From positions 15,795,869-15,859,868 of the forward strand of contig NC_088711.1 of assembly GCF_963576615.1 (NCBI RefSeq): a stretch of 64,000 nucleotides of DNA. The letters run 5' to 3'. The position numbers and the translations under genes were made by a program. Positions within the stretch are counted from its first letter, which is position 1. The number at the start of each line of letters is the position of its first letter. The notes under the pieces were generated by a model. It was not told where the DNA came from. It did not search any database and was given only the letters and a program-made list of their open reading frames with translations. This document shows positions 1 to 56,128 of the stretch, in pieces. Origin of the DNA: Watersipora subatra. Lineage: Eukaryota > Bryozoa > Gymnolaemata > Cheilostomatida > Watersiporidae.

Positions 1-712
1 ACGCAGTTTCGCTAGACGCAGTTGCGCTAGACAACTGTTTCGCTAGACGCAGTTACGCTAGACGCAGTTACGCTAGACGCAGTTACGCTAGACGCAGTTA
101 CGCTAGACGCAGTTACGCTAGACCCAGTTACGCTACGCGCAGTTACGCTACGCGCAGTTACGCTACGCGCAGTTACGCTACGCGCAGTTACGCTACGCGC
201 AGTTACGCTACGCGCAGTTACGCTACGCGCAGTTACGCTACGCGCAGTGACGCTACGCGCAGTTACGCTACGCGCAGTTACGCTACGCGCAGTTACGCTA
301 CGCGCAGTTACGCTACGCGCAGTTACGCTACGCGCAGTTACGCTACGCGCAGTTACGCTACGCGCAGTTACGCTACGCGCAGTTACGCTACGCGCAGTTA
401 CGCTACGCGCAGTTACGCTACGCGCAGTTACGTTACGCGCAGTTACGCTACGCGCAGTTACGCTACGCGCAGTTACGCTACGCGCAGTTACGCTACGCGC
501 AGTTACGCTACGCGCAGTTACGCTACGCGCAGTTACGCTAGACGCAGTTACGCTAGACGCAGTTACGTTAGACGCAGTTTCGCTAGACGCAGTTACGCTA
601 GACGCAGTTACGCTACACGCAGTTACGCTACACGCAGTTACGCTAGACACAGTTACGCTAAACACAGTTACGCTAGATACAGTTACGCTAGACACAGTTA
701 CGCTAGACACAT
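1..712. repeat. 15-bp CpG-rich minisatellite/satellite array
   Basis: About 47 head-to-tail copies of a 15-bp unit (core ACGCTACGCGCAGTT). The left and right ends carry diverged variants (ACGCTAGACGCAGTT, then ACGCTAAACACAGTT) and the centre is almost homogeneous. This is the usual pattern for an array homogenised by unequal exchange or replication slippage. It starts at the window edge, so its true length is unknown. Because 15 is divisible by 3, long open frames run through it on both strands; these are artefacts. The CpG density is unlike the surrounding AT-rich DNA. Confidence 0.97.
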
Positions 713-37129: not shown

Positions 37130-37981
37130 TTATGACTCTACCACAACTGCCTCATCCCATGGGCCATGCAGGTTATTCTTGAGTGGTTGAAGACGCACAA
37201 GCAGATGCGGGCATATAAACATAATAAAGAAAAATCCACAGAACAACAAGATGGCCACTGTAAAACTTTTAGAACAAACTAAAGCTAACGCACATACAAA
37301 ATGGACCACAGTCATAATTATGTCCAAGTATGGAAAAAAATGAGAGCGTAACTCTCGGCGCATATTCGGCAGCATGCCAAACACAAATGCTGACAGAATG
37401 ATTAATGAATACCCTAGTAGTAAATTAGGAAGACGCGAAGCTAAACACACAGTAGCGAAGATGCCAGCATTGAATGAGATGACACCATCGGTAGAAGCGT
37501 GCAGTTCATAGTCGTAGGAGATGAGATGGGCAAGCAACATGATGGCTGTCATTGCATATATAGTATCCGTAGAAATTGTTTCGGTGAGTGACATTAGTAC
37601 CGGTGATAAGACAAAGGCTGCCGTGCAGAATATGATCAAAGCTTTAATATCGCAGGCTGAACAATTAGTCAAGACTGTAAATGCATAACCTAAGAGCAGG
37701 AGAACTGCTGAGATGGAGTTGAGAAGGTAGCTAGTAAGAAGCTTCTCTTGTAGATATATAAAACACATGACAAATATTATGACAGTGTTTATTTGCTGGG
37801 TGATACAGCCAGTGCTGAGCACCACAGACCAGTAGTTATAACTCCTAACAAATAGGTTCTTCTGCATCTCTCTTAGAAATGAGCTGTCGACATAGTTGTC
37901 TGGTACGCCTTGATCTTCATAAAGCACCTTGCGCCATAGCTGGCGAGACCTGCCCTGATGCTCACCTCTATAATAAAACAT
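37130..37981 (-). CDS. PIGC: Phosphatidylinositol N-acetylglucosaminyltransferase subunit C (PIG-C)
   Basis: PIG-C is a multi-pass ER membrane subunit of the GPI-GlcNAc transferase, which catalyses the first step of GPI-anchor synthesis (transfer of GlcNAc from UDP-GlcNAc to phosphatidylinositol). Single coding exon of 283 codons; the human protein is about 297. Family hallmarks read in order: WRKVLYEDQGVPDNYVD near the N-terminus, SPVLMSLTETISTDTIYAM in the middle, FATVCLASRLP, and the C-terminal HGPWDEA. About eight hydrophobic segments. The first ATG is at 37981. An acceptor-like TTTTATTATAG just inside it leaves open a start in an upstream exon. The frame is intact. The gene converges on the ankyrin gene, stop to stop about 170 bp. 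Confidence 0.95.
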   Translation of the reverse strand: MFYYRGEHQGRSRQLWRKVLYEDQGVPDNYVDSSFLREMQKNLFVRSYNYWSVVLSTGCITQQINTVIIFVMCFIYLQEKLLTSYLLNSISAVLLLLGYAFTVLTNCSACDIKALIIFCTAAFVLSPVLMSLTETISTDTIYAMTAIMLLAHLISYDYELHASTDGVISFNAGIFATVCLASRLPNLLLGYSLIILSAFVFGMLPNMRRELRSHFFPYLDIIMTVVHFVCALALVCSKSFTVAILLFCGFFFIMFICPHLLVRLQPLKNNLHGPWDEAVVVES

Positions 37982-42200: not shown

Positions 42201-44231
42201 GTCTATTTATGTATAATCCGATCAGATGGGTGAGGTTTAGGAAATTTTCTACAAATAATAAAGACTTGGTAACATATTTAAATAGGTTTATATGTGTTTT
42301 GTATCGTTATTATACTTAAACGACTCCATTGAAAAATGGTTAAACTTGTTGACGAGATTTCGATACAAGGGTTTGCGACGACCATTGATGAATAATTTTC
42401 ATGAGTTGTGTGCACATATGCATTTATCATAAATCTCCCAAACAATCGCTTCGCTTGAGTTTGGTCATGGTATTAAATTTAGCGCAATCTTTTTTATTGC
42501 AACAGTGAGTATTCATACTTTTTTCGCTTTGCCTTACTCGGTTTTACTAAACTCCTCTAGGTTAATAAATACTCGCAAATATCATAAACATATTGTGTCA
42601 ACCCTGTAATAAGCATGCATTAAAAATTAAATACTAGAAACATCACATGGAATTGAAATTTTGGATTTTCGTTTTTCCTTTTTAAAGAATCAGGTAGCCT
42701 TTTGTAACAGTTCCTTGAGTGAGCTGACTCCAAAAGAAAACTACACAACAACAATGCTCCTGATCTTCAAAGCATGTGTGAAAATATTATGTCACAAATG
42801 CGGCATAAATCTAGAATATATAATACAAAAACAGTTATTGAACTAAAGACAAGGAAGTTGACCTAAAGAATAATACAGCTAGTTTTAACTTATCAACAGG
42901 CTTATTTAACAATGACTCAGAGTCATGATGGCGCGTTAAAAATCTGTAAAAATTGTCAAAAATACACTTAAGCTAAATGAAATTAATACAGCAATATATT
43001 TCTTGAAAACCATTAAATTAACCATGATTGTATACACATTATGTATGCTAGCCATTATTTTTAGGCACGTACAGTATTAGGTATTAGGCTAATATCTGCC
43101 ATTTGGGCACATACGGTACTAAGTGTTCGGCTAATATCTGCCACAACTGAAACATTATAAAAAACACCCATAGTACATACAAAACTGAGATGCCAAAGTA
43201 CACAAAGAAAAGGTAAAATATATAACATCTACCACAATGTACTCTATGGTAGCCTAATGTTTGTTCACATGCTCATGCACAAACGAAAGCTAGATGAAAA
43301 AAGTTAAAACTTATTGTACTTGTTAAAATTTTACACTTATAAGTAAAGAAGCCAGTAGACAAAGAGAAAAGGTAAATAAGTACAATACAGCGTAGATTGC
43401 TCTTTATTTTGCAACTTAGGTTTGAAGGAGCGTGGTTCGTTTAATGACGGATGTTCTCATGTCCGCAAAATTTGTCGTGAAGTGAGAACTACCTGTAATC
43501 AGTGAATTGTTACTAAATTTCTGATTATAAAACCGATCTAAAACTAACCGAATGATTGCTCAAACCTTCTATTGTCCTAAACAGCCATGATAACATAAAT
43601 ACATTAGAGGTTTGTGTTTTGAAGGAACTAAATAAAATGTTCACTTTATAAAGCTTACTCTGGTTATTAAATACTGTTTTTTTCTATAATTGATGACTGT
43701 GCAGAGGACTTAGAAAACAAAAATTTATTAAATTTTGCAAAAGGTACACAATGTGTCAGTTGATATTTTACTAAAATTAGGTTGTCTTGTTGAGTAAAAG
43801 CAATGATATAAAACCCCTACTTTTATATCATTTTCTTTTTTTCATTGGTTTTATATCTTTGGTAAAAGATAATCAAATTTTTTAGCGAAAAAAGCAGGAG
43901 AGTTTAAAGATTGCACCTAAAAAAATTTAACACCCATTAGTTTCATGACAGAGCTACAATCTTACTAATTACATGCTGATTACCATTTTTAATGTTACTT
44001 TCGCTCTGAGCCTTATTGTTTTAGAATTGTGTTAGTAGCGTATTTTAATTGTTTGACTAATTAAATAAGAAGGATCTTTTACTGGTAAATAACTAGCTAA
44101 GGTAATAATAGCTCAAAGTCTTCATTGGCACCTGAACCAGTAGGTGAACAAATACTAATACCTGAACCAGTACCTGAATCTAATAATCAGTTTAGTTCCC
44201 ACAAGCTAAGCAAGCGTGCACAAATAGAACA
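39248..44231. other. Gene-free AT-rich intergenic DNA with minor repeats
   Basis: No exon recognised. It contains short direct repeats: a 49-bp unit twice at 41006-41103, GAGAAATGCAATATTAG at about 41388 and again at about 41534, TTATTCTTATAATTAAAT twice near 41797-41850, and GGCTAATATCTGCCA twice near 43087-43145. Confidence 0.5.
41006..41103. repeat. 49-bp tandem duplication
   Basis: Two adjacent 49-bp units starting AACATACATTTATGAGA that differ at one position, followed by the beginning of a third. Confidence 0.9.
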
Positions 44232-44448
44232 TGTAATGGACTGAACAAAATAGTTATACTTAGTTGTGTTACCAATATTGGAGTTGTGTGTTTTTGTTTT
44301 TAGTTTTTAACTTGACCGGAAGTGATGTGGTCACTTGGCTATTGAGCACGGACGTTTTTTCTAGCACGTGCTGACATTAGTGTTTCGACTGTAATTAGTT
44401 TACCAATTAAATAAACATCTTGAAGTCAATCAACTACTGACTTTATTA
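44232..44448 (+). repeat. 5' LTR of element 1
   Basis: 217 bp, begins TGTAATGGACTG and ends CTGACTTTATTA. Contains AATTAAATAAACATC near its 3' end, a candidate poly(A) signal (AATAAA). Preceded by target duplication GAACA. Confidence 0.95.
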
Positions 44449-44466
44449 TGGCGTCGTAGGCAGGAT
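44449..44466 (+). other. Primer binding site of element 1
   Basis: TGGCGTCGTAGGCAGGAT follows the LTR without a gap. TGG complements the CCA end of a tRNA. The stretch resembles the 3' end of a serine tRNA, but this is from memory and not a search result. Confidence 0.6.
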
Positions 44467-44628
44467 CTAATGTCAATGACATTAGATTGTATAATATACT
44501 ATTGGACAATCCTGTAGTTAATTTGGTTCCTATCGCTACTATTGGAAGCTGCCGGTGCACAGTGATCGATTGAAGTGTTGAGATTTGCATTCAAACAATC
44601 TCCAGACAAATTACTTCCAGACTACAAG

Positions 44629-47600
44629 ATGCCAGGTGGACTTGAAATACCGAAGGGACTAGATTTTTCAAATACACAAAAGGCCTGGCCTGAGTACAAG
44701 CGCAGGTTCTTACGATATCGTAGTGCTTCAGGTTTATCAGAAAAGCCTGCACAGCAACAAGTTGACATGCTAATATATTGTATGGGTGAGGAGGCTGAGT
44801 CTATCATTCCACACCTACAAGTTCGACCTCCACAGGAAGCAGATGAAGACAACAATATACCTGCGGAGGATGCCGATGAAACCCTATTTGATCGAACTGT
44901 GGAAGCTTTTGATACATATTTCAATCCTAGAGATAATCATCTGCATTATGCAGTGCTTTTTGGCTCTCGTATGCAAGCTCCAGAGGAGTCAAATGATCAG
45001 TTTATTCGTAGCCTACATGAAATGGCAGCAAAATGCACTGGCTGGGACCAAAATCACAGAGATGATATGATACGGACTCGCATTTTAGCAGGCATGAGAG
45101 ACAAAGACCTGAGTCGTGAATTGCAACTGAATGCAAATATCACACTCCAACAGATACAGCAGCAACTAAGAACAAAGGAGATAATATTAGCCAATCAGAA
45201 AGCGGAGCAGGACGACCACATGGTGATGGCAGTACGCAGCACTAGGCCAAAGACATCACCACCAGCTAAGTATCAGCATCAATCAAAATCAGTAGAAACT
45301 AGGACAAGTGGTCGAAAGTCTGGTCAAATGATTGATAGTTGTCGATATTGTGGGAGCAGTCATGTGCGTGGTCGTTGCCCTGCCTATGGTAAGCGTTGCA
45401 AAAACTGCCGCAGGATGGGTCATTTTGAAAGAGTATGTGAATCAGGTCATGCTAAATCGGATAGAGGCTATAACCAGTGTAGCATTTCTCTTGAACATGA
45501 CCAGGCCTCTAATTCTGGAGATGATGATTATTTCCATGTTCAGGCAGTCAGCAACACCACTTGTCTAAATGATAGGTATGTCATTCCAATTACTATACAA
45601 GGTAAAACTATTAATGCAAGAATAGATACAGCTGCAGCTGTTAGTACTATGTCTAAGCCTACTTTCCTTAGCATTGGATGTACTCGTGTGACTCGTACTA
45701 AGGCTAAACTGACAGGGTATGGTGGGAGCCATATATCTGTCATAGGAAGGGTAAAGCTACCCGTGGTAGATCCAAGTGGGAAAGAAAGCGTGGTAAAATT
45801 TTATGTAACAGATGATGATAATGAAACTCTGATTGGGGCCCCTGCAATTGATGAGTTACAATTGATCAGAGTAAAAGGCAGCAAAGTAAATCAGGTTACA
45901 TCAAATAGTCTTGAGATGCCAGCAGAGCTGTCGCAACTTATAGCTGAGTATGATATAGTTTTTTCAGGACTTGGTAGGTTTGGAAAGCCAGTAGAGTTAG
46001 AGCTCAAATCTACTGCTGAGCCAAAAACTGTACCATCCAGGTTAGTACCGCATAAATTGAGGAAACCCCTGAAGCGGGAGCTGGATAAGTTGGTTAAGCT
46101 TGGTGTGATAGTAAGAGACACAAACCCCTCACAGTGGATGTCTCCTCTAGTAATAGTTAACAAACCCAACGGTGATGTCCGCTTGTGCCTAGACCCCCAC
46201 AATTTGAACCAAAATCTTATTCGTGCTCAGTGTGCAATACCTACCACTACTGAGATATTTTCCAAAGTGTCTGGCTCTAAGTATTTCACCACCCTCGATG
46301 CAAATCAATCTTTCCACCAAATTCCCTTGACAGAGACGTCAAGCATGCTTACTAGCTTCCTCACACCGTATGGTAAGTTTCGTTATAAACGATTACCAAT
46401 GGGCATATGTAATGCCCCTGAGATTTTTCATCAGAGGATGGCTGATGCAGTTGAAGATCTTCAAGGTGTTGAGGTGTACATTGATGATGTTTTAATTCAT
46501 GCTGCCACTCGTGAAGAACATGATATTCGTCTTAGGAAAGTGTTGGATCGTTTCAAACAGGTTGGTCTTACTCTAAATCCAGCCAAAGTGGTGTTTGCGA
46601 AACAATCAGTTGGTTACCTAGGACATGAGCTTTCGGGTAAAGGCATTGCCCCGTGCCACTCAAAAGTAGAAGCCATACAGCATATGGTTCAACCTCAGGA
46701 CAAGAAGGCAGTTCAGCGGTTCCTGGGATTTGTGACATATCTAGCTAAATTTATTCCCAACCTCGCCGACCACACACTACCTCTGCGAGAAGTAATGAAG
46801 AAAAATGTTCAATTCTATTGGGGACCTGCTCAATCTGAGGCTTTTGAAACCATTCGTAACCTGATAGTAGAAGCCCCAACTCTTAAGCTATATGATCCTG
46901 AAAAACCTGTCTATCTTTCAGCGGACAGCTCTAAGAGTAGTCTCGGAGCTGTCATTCTTCAAGACGGCCGCCCTATAGAATTCGCAGCCAAAGCGCTGAC
47001 AGATTGTCAGAGCCGCTATAGTCAAATAGAGAAGGAGTTGTTAGCATCTCTCTTTGCTTGCAAGCGCTTCAAATATTATTGTCTTGGGCAAAAAACTATT
47101 GAGGTGGAGACAGACCATCTTCCACTTCTAGGCTTGATGAACAAACCGATTAATGAACTGTCTCCTCGACTTGCAGCTATGAGACTTGAGTTGCTGCCGT
47201 ATCCAATTGCACTCAAATACTGTCCAGGTTCAGAGATGGTGTTAGCAGATACCCTCTCACGATCCTGTCCAGCAAAAATGAGCCAAGAGGATGACCTGGG
47301 GTCAGATCCTCTGTTGTCAGTTTGTTCAGTAGTCATCCGTAGCGCTGATGTCATGACCAAATATCAGAAAGCTACATTAGCTGATGAAGAGCTTCAGGTA
47401 GTCATGAGATATATTCAGGAGGGATGGCCTAGTCATAAGAAATCATGTGCATCGAGAGCTCTCCGATATTTCAATTTACGACATAGCCTAAGTATTGTGA
47501 ATGATGTAGTATTTTATGGTAGACGACTAGTTGTACCAGTGTCCTTACAAAGTGAAGTTGTTGATACATTACATTGTGCCCACCAAGGGGTGACTAAGAC

Positions 47601-48726
47601 TCTCCAACGTGCCTCAAATTCAGTTTTTTGGCCTGGCCTTCGTCATCGGCTGGAAGAGAAATGTCGTTCTTGTGAACCATGCATGTCTGTTGAGAGAAAT
47701 GAAAGAAAGGAACCATTGATTCCGTTTGCTATTCCTGCTTATCCATTTCAGACATTAGGAGTTGACTTGTTTGCAATAGGAGGGAAATCGTATCTCATGA
47801 TGGTCGATTATCTTACAAAATGGCCTGTGGTGAAACAGCTAGGCTCTGGTACTGGTAGTGCTGTGGTGATTGAGTGTTTACGTGAAGTGTTCTCTGATTT
47901 TGGCCAGCCTGAGTCAATAGTGTCGGACAATGGTCCTCAGTTTTCTTCGCAAGAGTTCAAGCGGTTCTGTTCTTTGCTTGGTATAGTACATAATACAAGT
48001 TCACCACTCCACCCTTCGGGGAATGGTCAGGTGGAGCGGGCCATTGGGACAGTGAAAGGTATGATGAAGAAATGTATAGAAGATGGATCAAGCTGGCTAA
48101 CCGGCTTGACCACTCTACGAAATACCCCTATAGCCAGTAGTCTACCCTCCCCGGCTGAGCTTTTGCAGGGCAGATATATAAGAGACAGTCTCCCGGTATG
48201 TAGAGACCGATATCAAGTTACTGGTTATTCTTTGGAACACATAAGAGAAAAGTTAGGTGCTATAAAAAGTTCCAACAAACATTACCATGACTCGCATGCC
48301 GGCCCACTGAAGACAGTGCTCAAACCAGGCCAACAGGTCTATTACAAGGCTGCCCAAGGGAGGTGGAGACCAGGGGTGATTGCCAAAATCCTGGGTGAAA
48401 GGTCTTATGAGATTGATGCTGGGGCATTTAAGTTAAGACGTAATCGCAAAGATCTGCGTGAGTCACAGGTGAAAGACAAACCTACTAGATCTATCATAGG
48501 GTTAGGAGTGAGAGACAGTATCACTGATACACCTTCAAACTCTAGTGACAATCCCAATGACTTACTCACAAATATTGAACCAGAAGATACTTCAGCCATG
48601 AACTGTAATATTGAGCAAGCGGCTCCAACTGTACCTGCCATGCCTGCAGGCGAGTCACATGAGGCTAAACCAATGCGAGTTCATAAGAAACCAATCTGGC
48701 ATAAGGATTATGATTTTAGATGGTGA
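44629..48726 (+). CDS. Gag-Pol polyprotein of element 1 (Ty3/gypsy)
   Basis: One frame of 1365 codons from the first ATG (44629); the frame is open a further 18 codons upstream. Order by residue: Gag (1-235), two zinc knuckles (about 237-272, second is CKNCRRMGHFERVC), aspartic protease with IDTAA (about 329), reverse transcriptase with YIDD (about 616), RNase H with the LSADSS aspartate (about 764) and TDHLPL, integrase with an HHCC zinc finger (about 980-1020) and D, D, E residues in GVDLF, SDNGPQF and QVERA, then a GPY/F-like basic tail. All catalytic motifs are present and no stop interrupts them, so the element may still be mobile. Gag and Pol are fused without a frameshift, so Gag excess would need another mechanism. 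Confidence 0.96.
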   Translation: MPGGLEIPKGLDFSNTQKAWPEYKRRFLRYRSASGLSEKPAQQQVDMLIYCMGEEAESIIPHLQVRPPQEADEDNNIPAEDADETLFDRTVEAFDTYFNPRDNHLHYAVLFGSRMQAPEESNDQFIRSLHEMAAKCTGWDQNHRDDMIRTRILAGMRDKDLSRELQLNANITLQQIQQQLRTKEIILANQKAEQDDHMVMAVRSTRPKTSPPAKYQHQSKSVETRTSGRKSGQMIDSCRYCGSSHVRGRCPAYGKRCKNCRRMGHFERVCESGHAKSDRGYNQCSISLEHDQASNSGDDDYFHVQAVSNTTCLNDRYVIPITIQGKTINARIDTAAAVSTMSKPTFLSIGCTRVTRTKAKLTGYGGSHISVIGRVKLPVVDPSGKESVVKFYVTDDDNETLIGAPAIDELQLIRVKGSKVNQVTSNSLEMPAELSQLIAEYDIVFSGLGRFGKPVELELKSTAEPKTVPSRLVPHKLRKPLKRELDKLVKLGVIVRDTNPSQWMSPLVIVNKPNGDVRLCLDPHNLNQNLIRAQCAIPTTTEIFSKVSGSKYFTTLDANQSFHQIPLTETSSMLTSFLTPYGKFRYKRLPMGICNAPEIFHQRMADAVEDLQGVEVYIDDVLIHAATREEHDIRLRKVLDRFKQVGLTLNPAKVVFAKQSVGYLGHELSGKGIAPCHSKVEAIQHMVQPQDKKAVQRFLGFVTYLAKFIPNLADHTLPLREVMKKNVQFYWGPAQSEAFETIRNLIVEAPTLKLYDPEKPVYLSADSSKSSLGAVILQDGRPIEFAAKALTDCQSRYSQIEKELLASLFACKRFKYYCLGQKTIEVETDHLPLLGLMNKPINELSPRLAAMRLELLPYPIALKYCPGSEMVLADTLSRSCPAKMSQEDDLGSDPLLSVCSVVIRSADVMTKYQKATLADEELQVVMRYIQEGWPSHKKSCASRALRYFNLRHSLSIVNDVVFYGRRLVVPVSLQSEVVDTLHCAHQGVTKTLQRASNSVFWPGLRHRLEEKCRSCEPCMSVERNERKEPLIPFAIPAYPFQTLGVDLFAIGGKSYLMMVDYLTKWPVVKQLGSGTGSAVVIECLREVFSDFGQPESIVSDNGPQFSSQEFKRFCSLLGIVHNTSSPLHPSGNGQVERAIGTVKGMMKKCIEDGSSWLTGLTTLRNTPIASSLPSPAELLQGRYIRDSLPVCRDRYQVTGYSLEHIREKLGAIKSSNKHYHDSHAGPLKTVLKPGQQVYYKAAQGRWRPGVIAKILGERSYEIDAGAFKLRRNRKDLRESQVKDKPTRSIIGLGVRDSITDTPSNSSDNPNDLLTNIEPEDTSAMNCNIEQAAPTVPAMPAGESHEAKPMRVHKKPIWHKDYDFRW

Positions 48727-48750
48727 CGAGCTGGAGAGAAGAATAGATCA

Positions 48751-48767
48751 CAAAGAGAAAAGGGAGA
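48751..48767 (+). other. Polypurine tract of element 1
   Basis: AAAGAGAAAAGGGAGA-type purine run ends directly at the 3' LTR; it is the plus-strand primer for reverse transcription. Confidence 0.85.
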
Positions 48768-48984
48768 TGTAATGGACTGAACAAAATAGTTATACTTAGT
48801 TGTGTTACCAATATTGGAGTTGTGTGTTTTTGTTTTTAGTTTTTAACTTGACCGGAAGTGATGTGGTCACTTGGCTATTGAGCACGGACGTTTTTTCTAG
48901 CACGTGCTGACATTAGTGTTTCGACTGTAATTAGTTTACCAATTAAATAAACATCTTGAAGTCAATCAACTACTGACTTTATTA
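48768..48984 (+). repeat. 3' LTR of element 1
   Basis: 217 bp, identical to the 5' LTR. Followed by target duplication GAACA. Confidence 0.95.
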
Positions 48985-51237: not shown

Positions 51238-53764
51238 ACCACATCAGTACACCACGACAGATTGGTGTGCACCTTGTATTGTTGTACCAAAAAAGAACGG
51301 AAAGATCAGGGTATGCATCGATTTCACCCGATTGAATGAGGCAGTAAAATGGGAGCTTCACCCATTACCCAAAACAGAGGAGACGCTGAGTGAGCTTGGG
51401 TCAGCAGTAAAATTTTCAAAGTTGGATGCAAACTGTGGATACTGGCAAATGAAGCTCAGCCCAGAGAGTCAAAAGCTTACCACCTTTATAACGCCATTCG
51501 GCAGATACAAATGCAAACGCTTACCGTTTGGGATTAGTTCTGCACCAGAGATCTTCCAGCGGGAAATACAGAAAGCATTAGTGGACAGCGAAGGCGTAAT
51601 CTGTCAAATGGATGATATTCTGGTTTATGGTGCTAGCCAACAAGAGCATGACAAAAGAGTAGAAGCCGTCCTGCAGAAGCTGAAATTAGCTGGAATTACC
51701 TTAAACAGTGACAAATGCCAATTTAACACACCAGAGGTGGTCTTTCTGGGCCATGTTATTTCTAAAGAGGGCATTAAAGCAGACCCGGAGAAAACTGAAG
51801 CAGTGCGAAGTTTTAAGGCACCTACCAACAAAAGAGAGTTAAGGCGGTTTTTCGGAGTCCTAAATTACCTCGGAAAATTTTTTCCTACATTGTCTCGAGG
51901 AACGCACAATCTACGGCAATTGCTACAAAAAGACAAGGAATGGGTCTGGGAAAGTGCGCAAGCTAATGAGTTTGATCAGTTGAGACAGACGATCTCCAAG
52001 GCACCCACGTTAACACCTTTCTGTTTGGAGGCACCAACAAGACTGAGTACAGATGCTTCTTCATATGGGCTTGGAGCCGCTGTCCTACAGCTGGTCAATG
52101 GGAAGTGGCGACCGGTGGCATATGCATCGCGCAGTCTCACTGCAGCAGAGCAAAAATATGCTCAAATAGAGAAGGAAGCACTCGCAATCTGTTGGGGATG
52201 TGAGAAGTTTCATTACTATTTGGCGGGTCGTGAGTTTGAGGTAGAAACAGATCACAAGCCACTCATATCAATCCTCGGAGACAAGGAACTATCCAAGCTG
52301 CCATTACGTGTTCAGAGGTTTAGACTCCGAATGATGGCTTACAGCTACAAAATTATGTATACACCAGGGGCAAAGCTAGTTTTGGCAGATGCCTTGTCTA
52401 GGTCTCCATTGAGTGTAACGGAAGTTGAGGGGGACGCAGATTTGGTCGAATCTCTTGTTGTGTGTGAGTTGGTTGACTCACTGGCTATATCTCCTAATCG
52501 ACTTGAAAGGATCAAGGCATCTCTTCTGGAGGATGCTGCGGGAATGAGGTTGTTGAAATACATTGCAGAAGGCTGGCCGCAATACAAGGATGTAGACCCG
52601 ACTGTGCGCAGCTTTTACACTTTCAAGGATTTCCTTTCAGTAGTACAGGGGAATGTGTTTTACAACAGCAGGGTGTTCATCCCGGAGCTGGAAAGACAGT
52701 CAGTACTAGCATCAGTGCACAAGGGCCATCAGGGGGAAACGAAGTGTATACGTCGGGCTGTGGAACTAGTCTGGTGGCCAGGAATGACCACTGAGATCCG
52801 GGAACTGGTCAAAACGTGTCCTGAGTGTGCCGAGTTCCGTAGACGGCCCAGAGAACCGCTGATGCGCGCAGAACTGCCTGAGAGACCATGGTGGAGGTTG
52901 GCTGTGGACATAATGGAGAAAGAGTCTTGGTCATACTTGGTAGTAGTGGACTACTTCAGCAGATTTATTACAGTGCATGAGTTGGTTGACTCAACCTCGT
53001 CAGAAGTCATCGTTAAAATTCTCCAAAAGTTGTTCTGTCTGATCGGAGTACCAAATTCGGTTATGAGTGACAATGGTCCACAGTTTAGTTCTGAAAGTTT
53101 CAAAAAGTTCATGAGAAAGTGGGACATACAGCATGTCACAAGTTCACCTAGGTACCCTCAAAGTAACAGTGAGGCTGAGCGGGCGGTACAAACTGTAAAA
53201 GCTCTGATGAACAAGAATGTCAGTCTTGATGCGGCACTCTGTTCATATCGAGACACACCATTAGCCAATGGCTACTCCCCTGCACAACTGTTGTTCGGAA
53301 GAGGGCTAAATTCGATGAGATTTTTGAATGGCCGCAAGATCGACTATGTGAGGCTACTGGAGACAGAGAAGTTGCAACGGAACTACCAAATATATCAGTA
53401 TAATCGAAGGTACAGGACTAAGGCACAAGAATCAGTCCCGATTGGACAAGATGTAGCCATACAAGACCCAGGTAAAGAGCCAGTGAGGGCAAGAGTTGTG
53501 GCGGCACAGGGGCATGAGGTTGTAGCCATAGGACAATCACAAAGGCTGTGGAGGCGAAATCGGCACTTAACCAGACCTTGTAGGGATTCAGAAGCATCGG
53601 TTCCAGGTGTGGTAGCACCTCGTGGTGAAACCTCAAGTCCACAGTCAGAGTCAGGTGTGGTTGCACCAGCGGTTCAAGCTGAGTTCGGCACAGGGGTGGA
53701 TGTAGAGGTACCAGCGGTACCCGACTCTAGACAGGTGCCGACATTGCTGAACCGGAGCCATTGA
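51238..53764 (+). pseudogene. Truncated Pol of element 2 (RT, RNase H, integrase)
   Basis: Open from the deletion junction to TGA at 53762-53764 with no start codon of its own. RT begins inside the palm (CIVVPKKNGKIRVCIDF) and keeps the catalytic QMDD. RNase H has STDASSYGLGA and TDHKPL. Integrase has the HHCC finger (HKGHQGE to CPEC) and D, D, E residues in AVDIME, SDNGPQF and SEAERA. After about 53735 the frame changes: the expected charged C-terminal tail (TTRSGRVS) lies in another frame and ends at TAA 53922-53924. This indicates one late frameshift. The rest of the coding sequence is clean, so the element is younger than element 3. Confidence 0.9.
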
Positions 53765-53945
53765 CGGGTCATGACAGTGGTACAACGGAGAGATGGTCAG
53801 AAGAGAGTCAACGAAGATTGGAGGTTCAACCCTGTGACCCTCGTGCCTCACCAACAGTGACCAGGAGGGTGACAACCAGAAGTGGCCGGGTAAGTAGGGC
53901 ACCTGAGAGGCTAAATATATAACTTTTGTGTGGTATTTTTTTAGC

Positions 53946-54593
53946 ATGAGAAATTTCCTAATTGGCAACTCAATCGTCAGAGACGTTGTCAGCTCACAAT
54001 GGGAGACCATTTGCTTGCCGGGGGTAGGTTGGCAGGAAGTCATTGACTATGTTCTTGATAGAAGGGAACATTTCCAGAGGTCTTTCATATACATTCATGT
54101 AGGACCAGTCCGATTCTCTAGGTTTCATAGGACTCAGAATAGACGGGAGGCTCAACTTATGACAACCTACCTGGGTACGGTGTGGAGCATTTTTGAAAGA
54201 TGGGATCATAGGCTAGGTAGTCTTAAAATCTTCCCTATATTGTGTACAATTTACCCAATGGACTTTAGGGTGTACAATGATCATCTGGCGGCCAGTGTTC
54301 CTGGAGGTCATGGTCGTCAGATTTTAACAGTGGATTATGCTGAAAATTCTCGCGTAATAAGGGGCATGGTGGTGGAAGAAAATAAACATATCACAGCTTT
54401 TAATGATTCCAATGGATTGTGCACACCATTCTTGCACCATACCATTTTTAAGAGAAATAGAGGTTATTATCGCTTTCGGCTTAGGTTTTTGAAGGATGGC
54501 CTTCACCCAACCCGAGAAATCGTGAGGCAGTGGGTGAGGGAGCTTAGGGAAGTCGTGATGCTGAATAATGCTAAATGGAGTGGTCTCCATTAG
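53946..54593 (+). CDS. SGNH/GDSL-like ORF in env position of element 2
   Basis: An intact 215-codon frame between pol and the 3' LTR, where retroviral-type elements carry env. The N-terminus FLIGNSIVRDV resembles SGNH block I (GDS with Asn for Asp, Ser9). PGVGWQEVIDYV resembles block II. IYIHVGPVRFSR sits where block III (GxND) is expected but lacks its Asn. DGLHPT near the C-terminus matches block V (Asp184, His187). No signal peptide or transmembrane segment, so it is not an envelope glycoprotein. A pyrimidine-rich splice acceptor (GGTATTTTTTTAG) ends one base before the ATG, so expression from a spliced mRNA is plausible. Family membership is inferred by eye. Related esterase domains are known in ORF1 of some CR1-type LINEs. 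Confidence 0.6.
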   Translation: MRNFLIGNSIVRDVVSSQWETICLPGVGWQEVIDYVLDRREHFQRSFIYIHVGPVRFSRFHRTQNRREAQLMTTYLGTVWSIFERWDHRLGSLKIFPILCTIYPMDFRVYNDHLAASVPGGHGRQILTVDYAENSRVIRGMVVEENKHITAFNDSNGLCTPFLHHTIFKRNRGYYRFRLRFLKDGLHPTREIVRQWVRELREVVMLNNAKWSGLH

Positions 54594-54810: not shown

Positions 54811-54835
54811 ATTGGAGGAGAGCTTAAGAAGGAGG
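54811..54835 (+). other. Polypurine tract of element 2
   Basis: GGAGGAGAGCTTAAGAAGGA-type purine-rich run directly before TGTGGTAG of the 3' LTR. Confidence 0.75.
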
Positions 54836-54989
54836 TGTGGTAGTCCCGGAAGTGTGACGCAGCGCGGGAGACGATTCAAGACGCTCCAGCTCGCTCTCTC
54901 TGATCTGCTAGCGACCGAGAAGGACGTGCCTTGACCGACGCTCTGGCTACATTCCAGCTATACTGCTACGCACTACCAGGTATAGTACA
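54836..54989 (+). repeat. 3' LTR of element 2
   Basis: 154 bp, TGTGGTAG to TAGTACA, followed by target duplication ACTGA (54990-54994). It is clearly more GC-rich than its surroundings. Confidence 0.85.
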
Positions 54990-54994
54990 ACTGA

Positions 54995-56128
54995 CACATG
55001 ACGTCTCAACACCTTACCAGAAGGACTAGCACATACCACGTCTGATCCTTGAACATCCAATACATGGAATGGCTCTGGACTACAAGCAGTGTCCAGCTTG
55101 CCTCTATTCTTCTGCCTCACAAGTACCGTATCACCCTGGGATATGGAGTGATCTCTCGCACCTCTATCTGCAGACTCTTTCATATTGTACTTATACAGAG
55201 CATCGGAGTCAGATACCTCTTCATCCGTGCTCTTTACGCAGTCGGACGCCATAGGAGGTTTGGTCTTCATCTCCTGACTAAACATCATATAATAGGGAGT
55301 TCTACCTGTCCCCATATGTGGTGTAGCCTTATAAGCCATAGAAAACTATCATAGCCCTTTCCAAGTCTTTTCCTTCTGACTTTACTACCCTAAGAACCTT
55401 CAGAATAGTGCGGTTCACTCTCTCCACCTCACCATTTGCTTGAGGCCAGATGGGTGTGGTAGAAATCCACTTAATACGGCACTGAGCAAGGAAAGAGTCA
55501 AATTCCTGAGAGATAAATTGTGGTCCATTATCAGTCCTTAACATCTATTGGTAGCCATATATTACAAACATTCTATCAAGAAAGGATATAACTTACAGAC
55601 TTGGTGCTTTTCAGAAAACAAACTTCAAATAGCTTACTATAATAATCAATTATCAACAGTACAGATCTACCACCAGACAAAGGACCCAAAAGATCTATGC
55701 TGCAGAGCTTCTAAGGACCCTTAGGCAATTTGGTTGGGGTAATAGGAGTAGGAGGATCACTATTACTAACTATCTGACATGAAAAACATTTGCGACACAA
55801 AACTTCAGCTTCCTTGTCAATTTTAGGCCATCAAACCTTCAGACGTAGTCTCTTCTTGGTTTTGACTCTGCCCTGATGTCCCTCATGGGCTAAACCCAAA
55901 ACCCTCTCTCTAAGGTTATCAGGAACAAAAATACGATCTCCTCGTATTACGACACCATCACAGCTACTAAGCTCATTCCACAGAGACTTAACTACAGCAG
56001 AGCACAAGCTCCAATCTCCCGACTTCAGAGCCAGATGTATCATCTGCTCTCCTGAGAAAAGTTTGCCGCTTCCTGAATGTCAGACCAATTCATAGCATAC
56101 GGAGTAGCAGCCTCAGTCACAGACCAGA
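54995..56128 (-). pseudogene. Integrase region of element 3
   Basis: Minus-strand fragments 56043-55831 (zinc finger start HEGHQGR), 55830-55545 (CRKCFSCQ, then the IDLLGP core, with stops), 55544-55329 (TDNGPQF and GEVERVN, the second Asp and the Glu of the DDE triad) and 55339-54995 (C-terminal domain ending RRHVS). Several frameshifts and stops separate them. The fragment ends exactly at the element 2 target duplication. Confidence 0.88.

What the first reader, a model, noticed from the sequence alone, without database searches (positions are those of the whole stretch)
53946..54593. SGNH/GDSL-like protein encoded in the env position of a gypsy element
Seen: an intact 215-codon frame between pol and the polypurine tract/3' LTR of element 2, with GNS near the N-terminus and DGLHPT near the C-terminus, in the order of SGNH hydrolase blocks I and V. 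It is not Env: no signal peptide or membrane segment. A strong splice acceptor sits one base before its ATG. Known: esterase/SGNH domains occur in ORF1 of some CR1-type LINEs. Inference: an LTR element has acquired or shares such an ORF and expresses it from a spliced mRNA. Block I Asp is Asn and the GxND motif is not conserved, so it may bind without being an esterase.
Basis: partly seen in the sequence, partly recalled or inferred. Interest (0 to 1): 0.75.

Follow-up and report, generated by a model that had tools for sequence, protein, structure and literature searches.

The report
SGNH-fold third gene in gypsy retrotransposons
A family of retrovirus-like jumping genes in a bryozoan carries, where a virus would keep its envelope gene, a conserved gene for an esterase-fold protein whose active site is partly rebuilt, a new variant of a rarely described kind of accessory gene.

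The parts
51257..53770 (+). pol remnant of element 2 (RT, RNase H, integrase; Ty3/gypsy order), 5'-truncated, tail out of frame
   Evidence: Pfam RVT_1, RT_RNaseH, Integrase_H2C2, rve; 98.8% to copy L009, with break points at 53743-53772
53920..53922 (+). TAA that ends pol in L009 (RLNI, then stop); out of the pol frame in this copy
   Evidence: sequence compared with L009
53943..53944 (+). AG of the splice-acceptor-like site, T-rich tract before it
   Evidence: the corresponding AG of copy L009 scores best of 482 by ad hoc weights
53946..54593 (+). ORF3: 215-residue SGNH-fold protein
53964..53972 (+). Block I: GNS (Ser9)
   Evidence: S9 in 48 of 49, N8 in 47 of 49 rows with a residue there
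54018..54023 (+). Block II: PG (Gly26)
   Evidence: G26 in 49 of 51 rows
54102..54116 (+). Block III position: GPVRF in place of GxND
   Evidence: G53 54/55, P54 54/55, V55 52/55, R56 50/55, F57 52/55
54495..54506 (+). Block V: DGLH (Asp184, His187)
   Evidence: each 52 of 53 rows
54826..54835 (+). polypurine tract
   Evidence: sequence; AAGAGGGAGG, or one base off it, at the same place in the 9 same-family copies with LTR pairs
54836..54989 (+). 3' LTR (TG...CA, 154 bp)
   Evidence: 99.4% to the LTR of L009

Best explanation
ORF3 is the lineage-specific third gene of a Ty3/gypsy retrotransposon clade. SHOWN: it encodes a compact, basic protein predicted to have an SGNH-hydrolase fold, with no hydropathy-predicted membrane segment in the window copy; it lies between pol and the 3' LTR in copies of five families; it is under purifying selection; a splice-acceptor-like AG sits directly before its ATG in every copy read. 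INFERRED: it is made from a spliced subgenomic mRNA, as env is in retroviruses, and works inside the cell as an accessory protein. The most likely role is holding the element's RNP or Gag particles to membrane lipids, as proposed for the ZfL2-1 LINE esterase. The Ser-Asp-His triad is probably still used for acyl chemistry, with an oxyanion hole built without the Block III Asn.
Against: No RNA data: splicing is not shown, and two of five families have no good leader donor. In four families pol ends 22-170 nt before the ATG, so reinitiation is possible. Block III Asn is absent in 55 of 55 rows. Same-family copies show only mild constraint (pN/pS 0.535). 69 of 150 listed ORF3 hits have no listed pol hit upstream (many are fragments). 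Membrane or RNA binding rests on analogy and charge alone. The model's active-site geometry could not be inspected (no coordinates).
Confidence: 0.5

Rival explanations
1. ORF3 is a dead SGNH fold that binds RNA, as the OSK domain of Oskar does, and helps package or localise the element's RNA.
Against: Oskar's domain has lost Ser and His of the triad (PMC2848206, passage); here both, and the Asp, are near-invariant, which a pure binder does not need. OSK ranks below many acylhydrolases. The ZfL2-1 esterase did not bind oligo-(A) RNA (PMC3905857, abstract passage).
Confidence: 0.27
2. ORF3 acts in entry or exit in place of Env, for example by modifying host membrane lipids or surface glycans.
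For: Env position and acceptor-like site; SGNH folds occur in viral haemagglutinin-esterases (PMC9487903, passage).
Against: No membrane segment by hydropathy in P0001 (6 of 54 members exceed the 1.6 threshold); the conserved Met lies directly before the first strand of the fold (residues 2-7), leaving no room for a signal peptide unless an upstream start is used.
Confidence: 0.1
3. A host SGNH gene fragment was picked up by chance and has no function in the element.
For: Many own-genome ORF3 copies are broken or partial; same-family constraint is mild.
Against: Present in 70 of 76 listed same-lineage pol hits; saturated synonymous sites but 71% identical protein in L025/L026; ORF3 and integrase distances correlate (Mantel r 0.72, p 5e-5, ten elements; 0.52, p 1.5e-4 after dropping L025).
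Confidence: 0.03

Closest known systems
GDSL ORF3 of bdelloid rotifer Vesta1 LTR retrotransposons (Rodriguez et al. 2017, PMC5408684; abstract and passages)
   Same: LTR retrotransposon; third ORF after pol; GDSL/SGNH domain instead of Env; reported without TM or coiled coil
   Different: Vesta residues S, G, N, H are reported intact; here Block III Asn and the GDS Asp are lost. Vesta, Juno and TelKA carry a dUTPase between protease and RT; no dUTPase domain is listed for any of the 49 nearest pol proteins here. Different host phylum. Sequence kinship of the ORFs was not tested
GDSL derivatives of Athena-L Penelope-like elements (same paper, passage)
   Same: Retroelement GDSL-type domain that lacks catalytic residues, so a degenerate SGNH in a retroelement is not new as such
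   Different: Penelope-like, no LTR or integrase; grouped by the authors with PC-esterases
Esterase domain of CR1/L2-type LINE ORF1 (zebrafish ZfL2-1, PDB 4c1b; PMC3905857, passages)
   Same: Only PDB chain matched by the profile (E 0.051); G[DN]SIVR, PGA, HVG and DGLHP in common; acidic-phospholipid binding by a basic face is an attractive parallel
   Different: LINE, upstream of the RT, with coiled coil and Asn195 in the oxyanion hole; here stand-alone, 3' of pol
SGNH ORF of Ngaro-like (DIRS order) elements of amphibians (PMC9210276, passages)
   Same: Extra SGNH ORF in a retroelement, after the other genes
   Different: Tyrosine-recombinase element, not LTR/integrase
SGNH proteins without the Block III Asn: SASA family, BcPatB1, PC-esterase XOAT1 (review PMC9487903, passages)
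   Same: SGNH fold and catalytic Ser with an alternative oxyanion hole; XOAT1 has hydrophobic residues at Block III
   Different: Cellular enzymes acting on carbohydrates; the GPVRF signature is not mentioned in the passages seen
OSK domain of Drosophila Oskar (5a4a)
   Same: Non-canonical SGNH fold, RNP context
   Different: Ser and His lost in Oskar, kept here

Membership tests
SGNH/GDSL hydrolase superfamily | alpha/beta/alpha SGNH fold | tested here: met
SGNH/GDSL hydrolase superfamily | Block I Ser | tested here: met
   S9 in 48 of 49; motif is GNS, not GDS
SGNH/GDSL hydrolase superfamily | Block II Gly | tested here: met
   G26 in 49 of 51
SGNH/GDSL hydrolase superfamily | Block III Asn | tested here: not met
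   GPVRF at that place; V55 in 52 of 55, no Asn at positions 53-57 in any of 55 rows
SGNH/GDSL hydrolase superfamily | Block V DxxH | tested here: met
   D184 and H187 each 52 of 53
SGNH/GDSL hydrolase superfamily | match to a curated family model (Pfam) | tested here: not met
   P0001: no Pfam family at E<=10; none of the 11 members of A2 matched a GDSL model
SGNH/GDSL hydrolase superfamily | esterase or acyltransferase activity | not testable with these tools
   needs bench work
Ty3/gypsy LTR retrotransposon (the carrier) | RT-RNase H-integrase order, LTR pair, PBS, PPT, 5-bp target-site duplication | tested here: met
   Pfam order in the window; LTR pairs in 9 of 12 same-family copies; PBS and PPT in these 9, 5-bp duplications in 8 of the 9, L014 and L015 being one duplicated insertion
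Retroviral/errantiviral Env | transmembrane segment | tested here: not met
   best 19-residue hydropathy mean 0.89 for P0001; 6 of 54 members exceed 1.6
Retroviral/errantiviral Env | signal peptide | tested here: inconclusive
   no signal-peptide program run; Met directly precedes the first strand of the fold
Vesta-type GDSL ORF3 element | ORF 3' of pol with GDSL/SGNH domain | tested here: met
   position and fold
Vesta-type GDSL ORF3 element | intact S, G, N, H (as reported) | tested here: not met
   Asn absent
Vesta-type GDSL ORF3 element | dUTPase between protease and RT (as reported) | tested here: not met
   precomputed Pfam domains of P0063-P0111 list no dUTPase (the accession PF00692 for dUTPase is recalled)
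Vesta-type GDSL ORF3 element | sequence homology to Vesta1 ORF3 | not tested
   no Vesta sequence at hand
CR1/L2 ORF1 esterase | sequence kinship | tested here: inconclusive
   profile hit E 0.051 to 4c1b
CR1/L2 ORF1 esterase | position 5' of the RT in a LINE | tested here: not met
   lies 3' of integrase in an LTR element
CR1/L2 ORF1 esterase | coiled coil | not tested
   no coiled-coil program run
Oskar OSK-type dead SGNH | loss of Ser and His | tested here: not met
   both kept

The most novel reading that the evidence does not exclude
ORF3p is an active serine acylhydrolase or acyltransferase with a rebuilt oxyanion hole (Block III replaced by the near-invariant GPVRF signature; invariant Asn111 and near-invariant Asn146/Asn153 as candidates to supply the missing donor). 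An integrase-bearing LTR retrotransposon lineage has kept it as its only env-position gene and makes it from a spliced mRNA to control membrane association of its particles.
Probability: 0.3. Interest if true: 0.72.

Novelty: new variant of a known kind. Interest (0 to 1): 0.52.

Why it matters
Retroelements of several unrelated kinds are in print as carrying SGNH proteins (CR1/RTEX LINEs, Penelope-like, Ngaro/DIRS, bdelloid LTR elements; PMC3905857, PMC5408684, PMC9210276), and what the proteins do for the element is unproven. Here the gene is a long-kept, lineage-defining part of a gypsy clade with young copies in a sequenced animal, small enough to study as a purified protein, and with an altered active site that could separate catalysis from binding. 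That makes the question 'enzyme, membrane tether or RNA tether?' directly testable. It also extends non-envelope genes in the env position of LTR elements beyond rotifers.

Tried and rejected
Led nowhere or went against the reading: no Pfam match at E<=10; no relative in viral contigs (50 pattern stretches, none confirmed) or genome contigs (33, none), so the hosts of the database relatives remain unknown. At least one, P0032, is probably Watersipora itself (2% from L025). VIA-align listed no LINE esterase in its 50 rows; that is no evidence against kinship.

Considered and rejected: chance ORF (59 relatives); host gene next to the element; Env (hydropathy). A domesticated gene array was suspected from 13 listed plus-strand hits (27-36%) at C4:66.02-66.93 Mb. 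The one stretch fetched there (L029, one of the 13) holds a broken ORF3 (two stops) behind a broken integrase tail, so an old decayed element; the other 12 were not read.

Exceptions to linkage: 6 of 76 listed pol hits >=52% lack a listed ORF3 hit. One of these (L032, C8:20722953) was read and has no ORF3-like frame of 60 aa or more; the other five were not read. Of the 26 hits at 45-51% without ORF3, two were read (L030, L031; both 46%): no frame >=100 aa downstream except one of 100 aa 2.7 kb away in L030.

Weak points of my tests: splice weights were ad hoc (recalled consensus). Acceptor ranks for one copy per family were 1/482, 4/523, 20/505, 28/476 and 12/438, so only the first two are outstanding; other copies scored 4/529, 7/257, 4/421, 10/301. 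The L021 leader donor lies inside the LTR. Fisher's test takes the families as independent. The first Mantel run used a short L028 piece and a near-duplicate pair; one search replaced it. Rows dropped: P0012, P0056-P0059, P0061 and P0062 from A3 (fragments or too distant); from the tree P0105, pols under 740 aa (except P0111), L028 (too short) and three of four distant pols. In that tree (70 tips) all 10 ORF3-linked pols fall in one 24-tip clade (14 of its tips of unknown ORF3 state) within a 51-tip clade (support 0.949); the 24-tip node's support was lost on rerooting.

Papers that came up in the novelty searches with one or two mentions of SGNH or GDSL were opened at those passages: PMC9025612 and PMC7599744 (a reference on a platyfish SGNH gene in a Helitron), PMC9063065 (a mussel gene under selection) and PMC5718144 (repeats the rotifer finding); none describes this gene.

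Unanswered because the server was busy: own-genome search for P0062- and P0061-like SGNH genes as a possible source.

Full report
What the window is. The window is G000:C4:15795869-15859868. The assembly has 783.72 Mb in 239 contigs with a longest contig, C1, of 79,350,317 bases. That equals the longest scaffold given for Watersipora subatra tzWatSuba1.1 (783.70 Mb, 11 chromosomes; PMC12902671, abstract in the listing, passages). A database protein named as W. subatra is 87% identical to part of the window's pol (P0127).

The observation. The frame 53946-54593 is intact, 215 codons. It follows a gypsy pol (RVT_1, RNase H, zinc-binding domain, rve) and precedes a purine tract and a 154-bp 3' LTR at 54836-54989, 99.4% identical to the LTR of copy L009. 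The window copy is a 5'-truncated remnant: the leader, gag and protease part of L009 has no match in the window, and its pol frame ends early with alignment breaks in the tail. ORF3 itself is unharmed.

It is a real protein family. One search with the window protein gave 11 relatives. A profile of 11 sequences gave 61 proteins at E<=1, 59 of them at E<=1.4e-10. In the 55-sequence alignment A3 the following residues hold: Ser9 48 of 49, Gly26 49 of 51, Gly53 and Pro54 54 of 55 each, Asn111 55 of 55, Asp184 and His187 52 of 53 each. Block I reads GNS (Asn8 47 of 49), and no row has Asn at the Block III positions 53-57.

It belongs to the element. Of the ORF3 hits in the own genome (153, 150 listed) 20 were fetched with long flanks; 12 are of the window's family. 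Nine of these 12 have an LTR pair (92-100% identical), and 7 of the 8 from other families do too (L023 and L024 have the pair but a shortened inside). In the nine, ends are TG...CA, the PBS is TGGTGTCAGA, the PPT is AAGAGGGAGG or one base off, and 5-bp target-site duplications can be read in 8 (L014 and L015 share flanks and are one insertion copied with its surroundings). With an integrase piece of the same length as ORF3 as query (150 best of 6089 candidates scored), ORF3 lies within 3 kb downstream on the same strand in 24 of 26 hits at >=84% identity, 46 of 50 at 52-83%, 6 of 32 at 45-51% and 0 of 42 at <=44%; upstream or opposite-strand control 0 of 150. In the other direction 81 of 150 listed ORF3 hits have a listed pol hit upstream. 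ORF3 and integrase distances agree among ten elements (Mantel r 0.72, p 5e-5; r 0.52, p 1.5e-4 without L025).

Selection. Among copies of the L021 family (L021 or L022 against L023, L024, L027, and these against each other) omega is 0.25-0.39. L025 and L026 are 71% identical in protein with saturated synonymous sites (pS 0.87, pN 0.19). Among same-family copies of the window's family the pooled pN/pS is 0.535, as expected when functional history is mixed with decay after insertion. Of its 13 full-length copies at >=91%, 11 have no stop.

Expression. In L009-L012 pol ends 22-25 nt before the ORF3 ATG; in three other families 30 (L025), 36 (L026) and 62-170 nt (L022, L021), with one broken case at 353 (L028). 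In all 20 fetched copies and the window an AG lies 0-2 nt before the ATG although the surrounding DNA differs between families. With ad hoc weights it ranks 1 of 482, 4 of 523, 20 of 505, 28 of 476 and 12 of 438 among the AGs of one copy per family, Fisher p 1e-5; an AG at 0-2 nt occurs before 141 of 573 ATGs of these copies, so all five by chance is about 9e-4. A good donor upstream of gag exists in L009, L021 (inside the LTR) and L028 but not clearly in L025 and L026. Splicing is the better reading but is not shown; termination-reinitiation is the alternative.

How it most likely works. The protein is basic (+10; +6 to +22 in the 54 members counted) and without a hydropathy-predicted membrane segment in the window copy. 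The ZfL2-1 esterase hydrolyses esters and binds acidic phospholipids and liposomes, the latter also with active-site mutations (PMC3905857, passages). Oskar's dead SGNH domain has an RNA-binding function (PMC11321996, PMC2848206, passages). Here the triad is retained, unlike in Oskar, and several SGNH enzymes are active without the Block III Asn, XOAT1 with hydrophobic residues there (PMC9487903, passages). I therefore favour a cytosolic, membrane- or RNP-associated accessory protein with residual acyl chemistry; this last step is inference.

What is known. GDSL ORF3s in LTR retrotransposons were reported from bdelloid rotifers in 2017, with the SGNH residues intact and a dUTPase in the pol of Vesta, Juno and TelKA (PMC5408684, abstract and passages). 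The 49 nearest pol proteins here list no dUTPase domain, so this is not the Vesta lineage by that mark. The same paper mentions GDSL derivatives without catalytic residues in Athena-L, so a degenerate SGNH in a retroelement is not new in itself. SGNH ORFs are also described in Ngaro elements (PMC9210276, passages) and in CR1, RTEX and Penelope-like elements (PMC3905857, PMC5408684). Full-text searches for SGNH+retrotransposon+gypsy, GDSL+LTR retrotransposon+ORF3, SGNH+transposable element+LTR and bryozoa+retrotransposon+gypsy showed no report of this gene or of a Block-III-less SGNH in an integrase-bearing LTR element; most hits were seen as listings, four more were opened at the word. Subscription journals and Repbase reports are not in that library. 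Hence: a new variant of a known kind, of specialist interest, ordinary in its broad outline.

Noticed in passing
L009:4257-4265 and the same place in L010, L011, L013-L015, L017-L022, L025, L026, L028: gag and pol of this lineage are in one frame, separated by a stop that reads TGA CTA in 15 of the 16 copies looked at, across five families (not in L024; L020, L025 and L026 have further stops after it, as decayed copies do). TGA-CTA is, from memory, a known leaky-stop context, so gag-pol is probably made by stop-codon readthrough. One literature search (listing only) showed no title on this in gypsy elements.
   Followed up: partly
G000:C4:66017185-66929438: 13 listed weak ORF3 hits (27-36%), all on the plus strand, within 0.9 Mb near the chromosome end. 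The one read (L029) is a decayed copy with a decayed integrase tail; why all have one orientation is unexplained.
   Followed up: partly
window 44222-48984: Element 1: gypsy element with 227-bp LTRs, 98% identical, and a single open 1386-codon gag-pol frame that ends 31 bases before the 3' LTR, so no third ORF.
   Followed up: partly
window 54947-56079 (minus strand): Frames that read like another gypsy pol lie on the other strand directly behind, and slightly into, the 3' LTR of element 2: probably a nested or broken-up insertion (not searched).
   Followed up: no
window 37130-37981 (minus strand): Intact 283-residue frame matching Pfam GPI2 at E 4.8e-74: an intronless host gene or retrocopy.
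   Followed up: no
P0061 and P0060 (database proteins): Two more distant relatives with GIPDI at Block III; P0061 (350 aa) adds a long charged tail and lies on a 5.7-kb contig: possibly further subtypes of the same third gene.
   Followed up: no
G000:C6:13931769-13935413 and C6:15150147-15153791 (L007/L014, L008/L015): Two copies of the same insertion with the same flanks, so a segmental duplication about 1.2 Mb apart.
   Followed up: no
window 1-711: Tandem array with a 15-base period and open frames on both strands.
   Followed up: no
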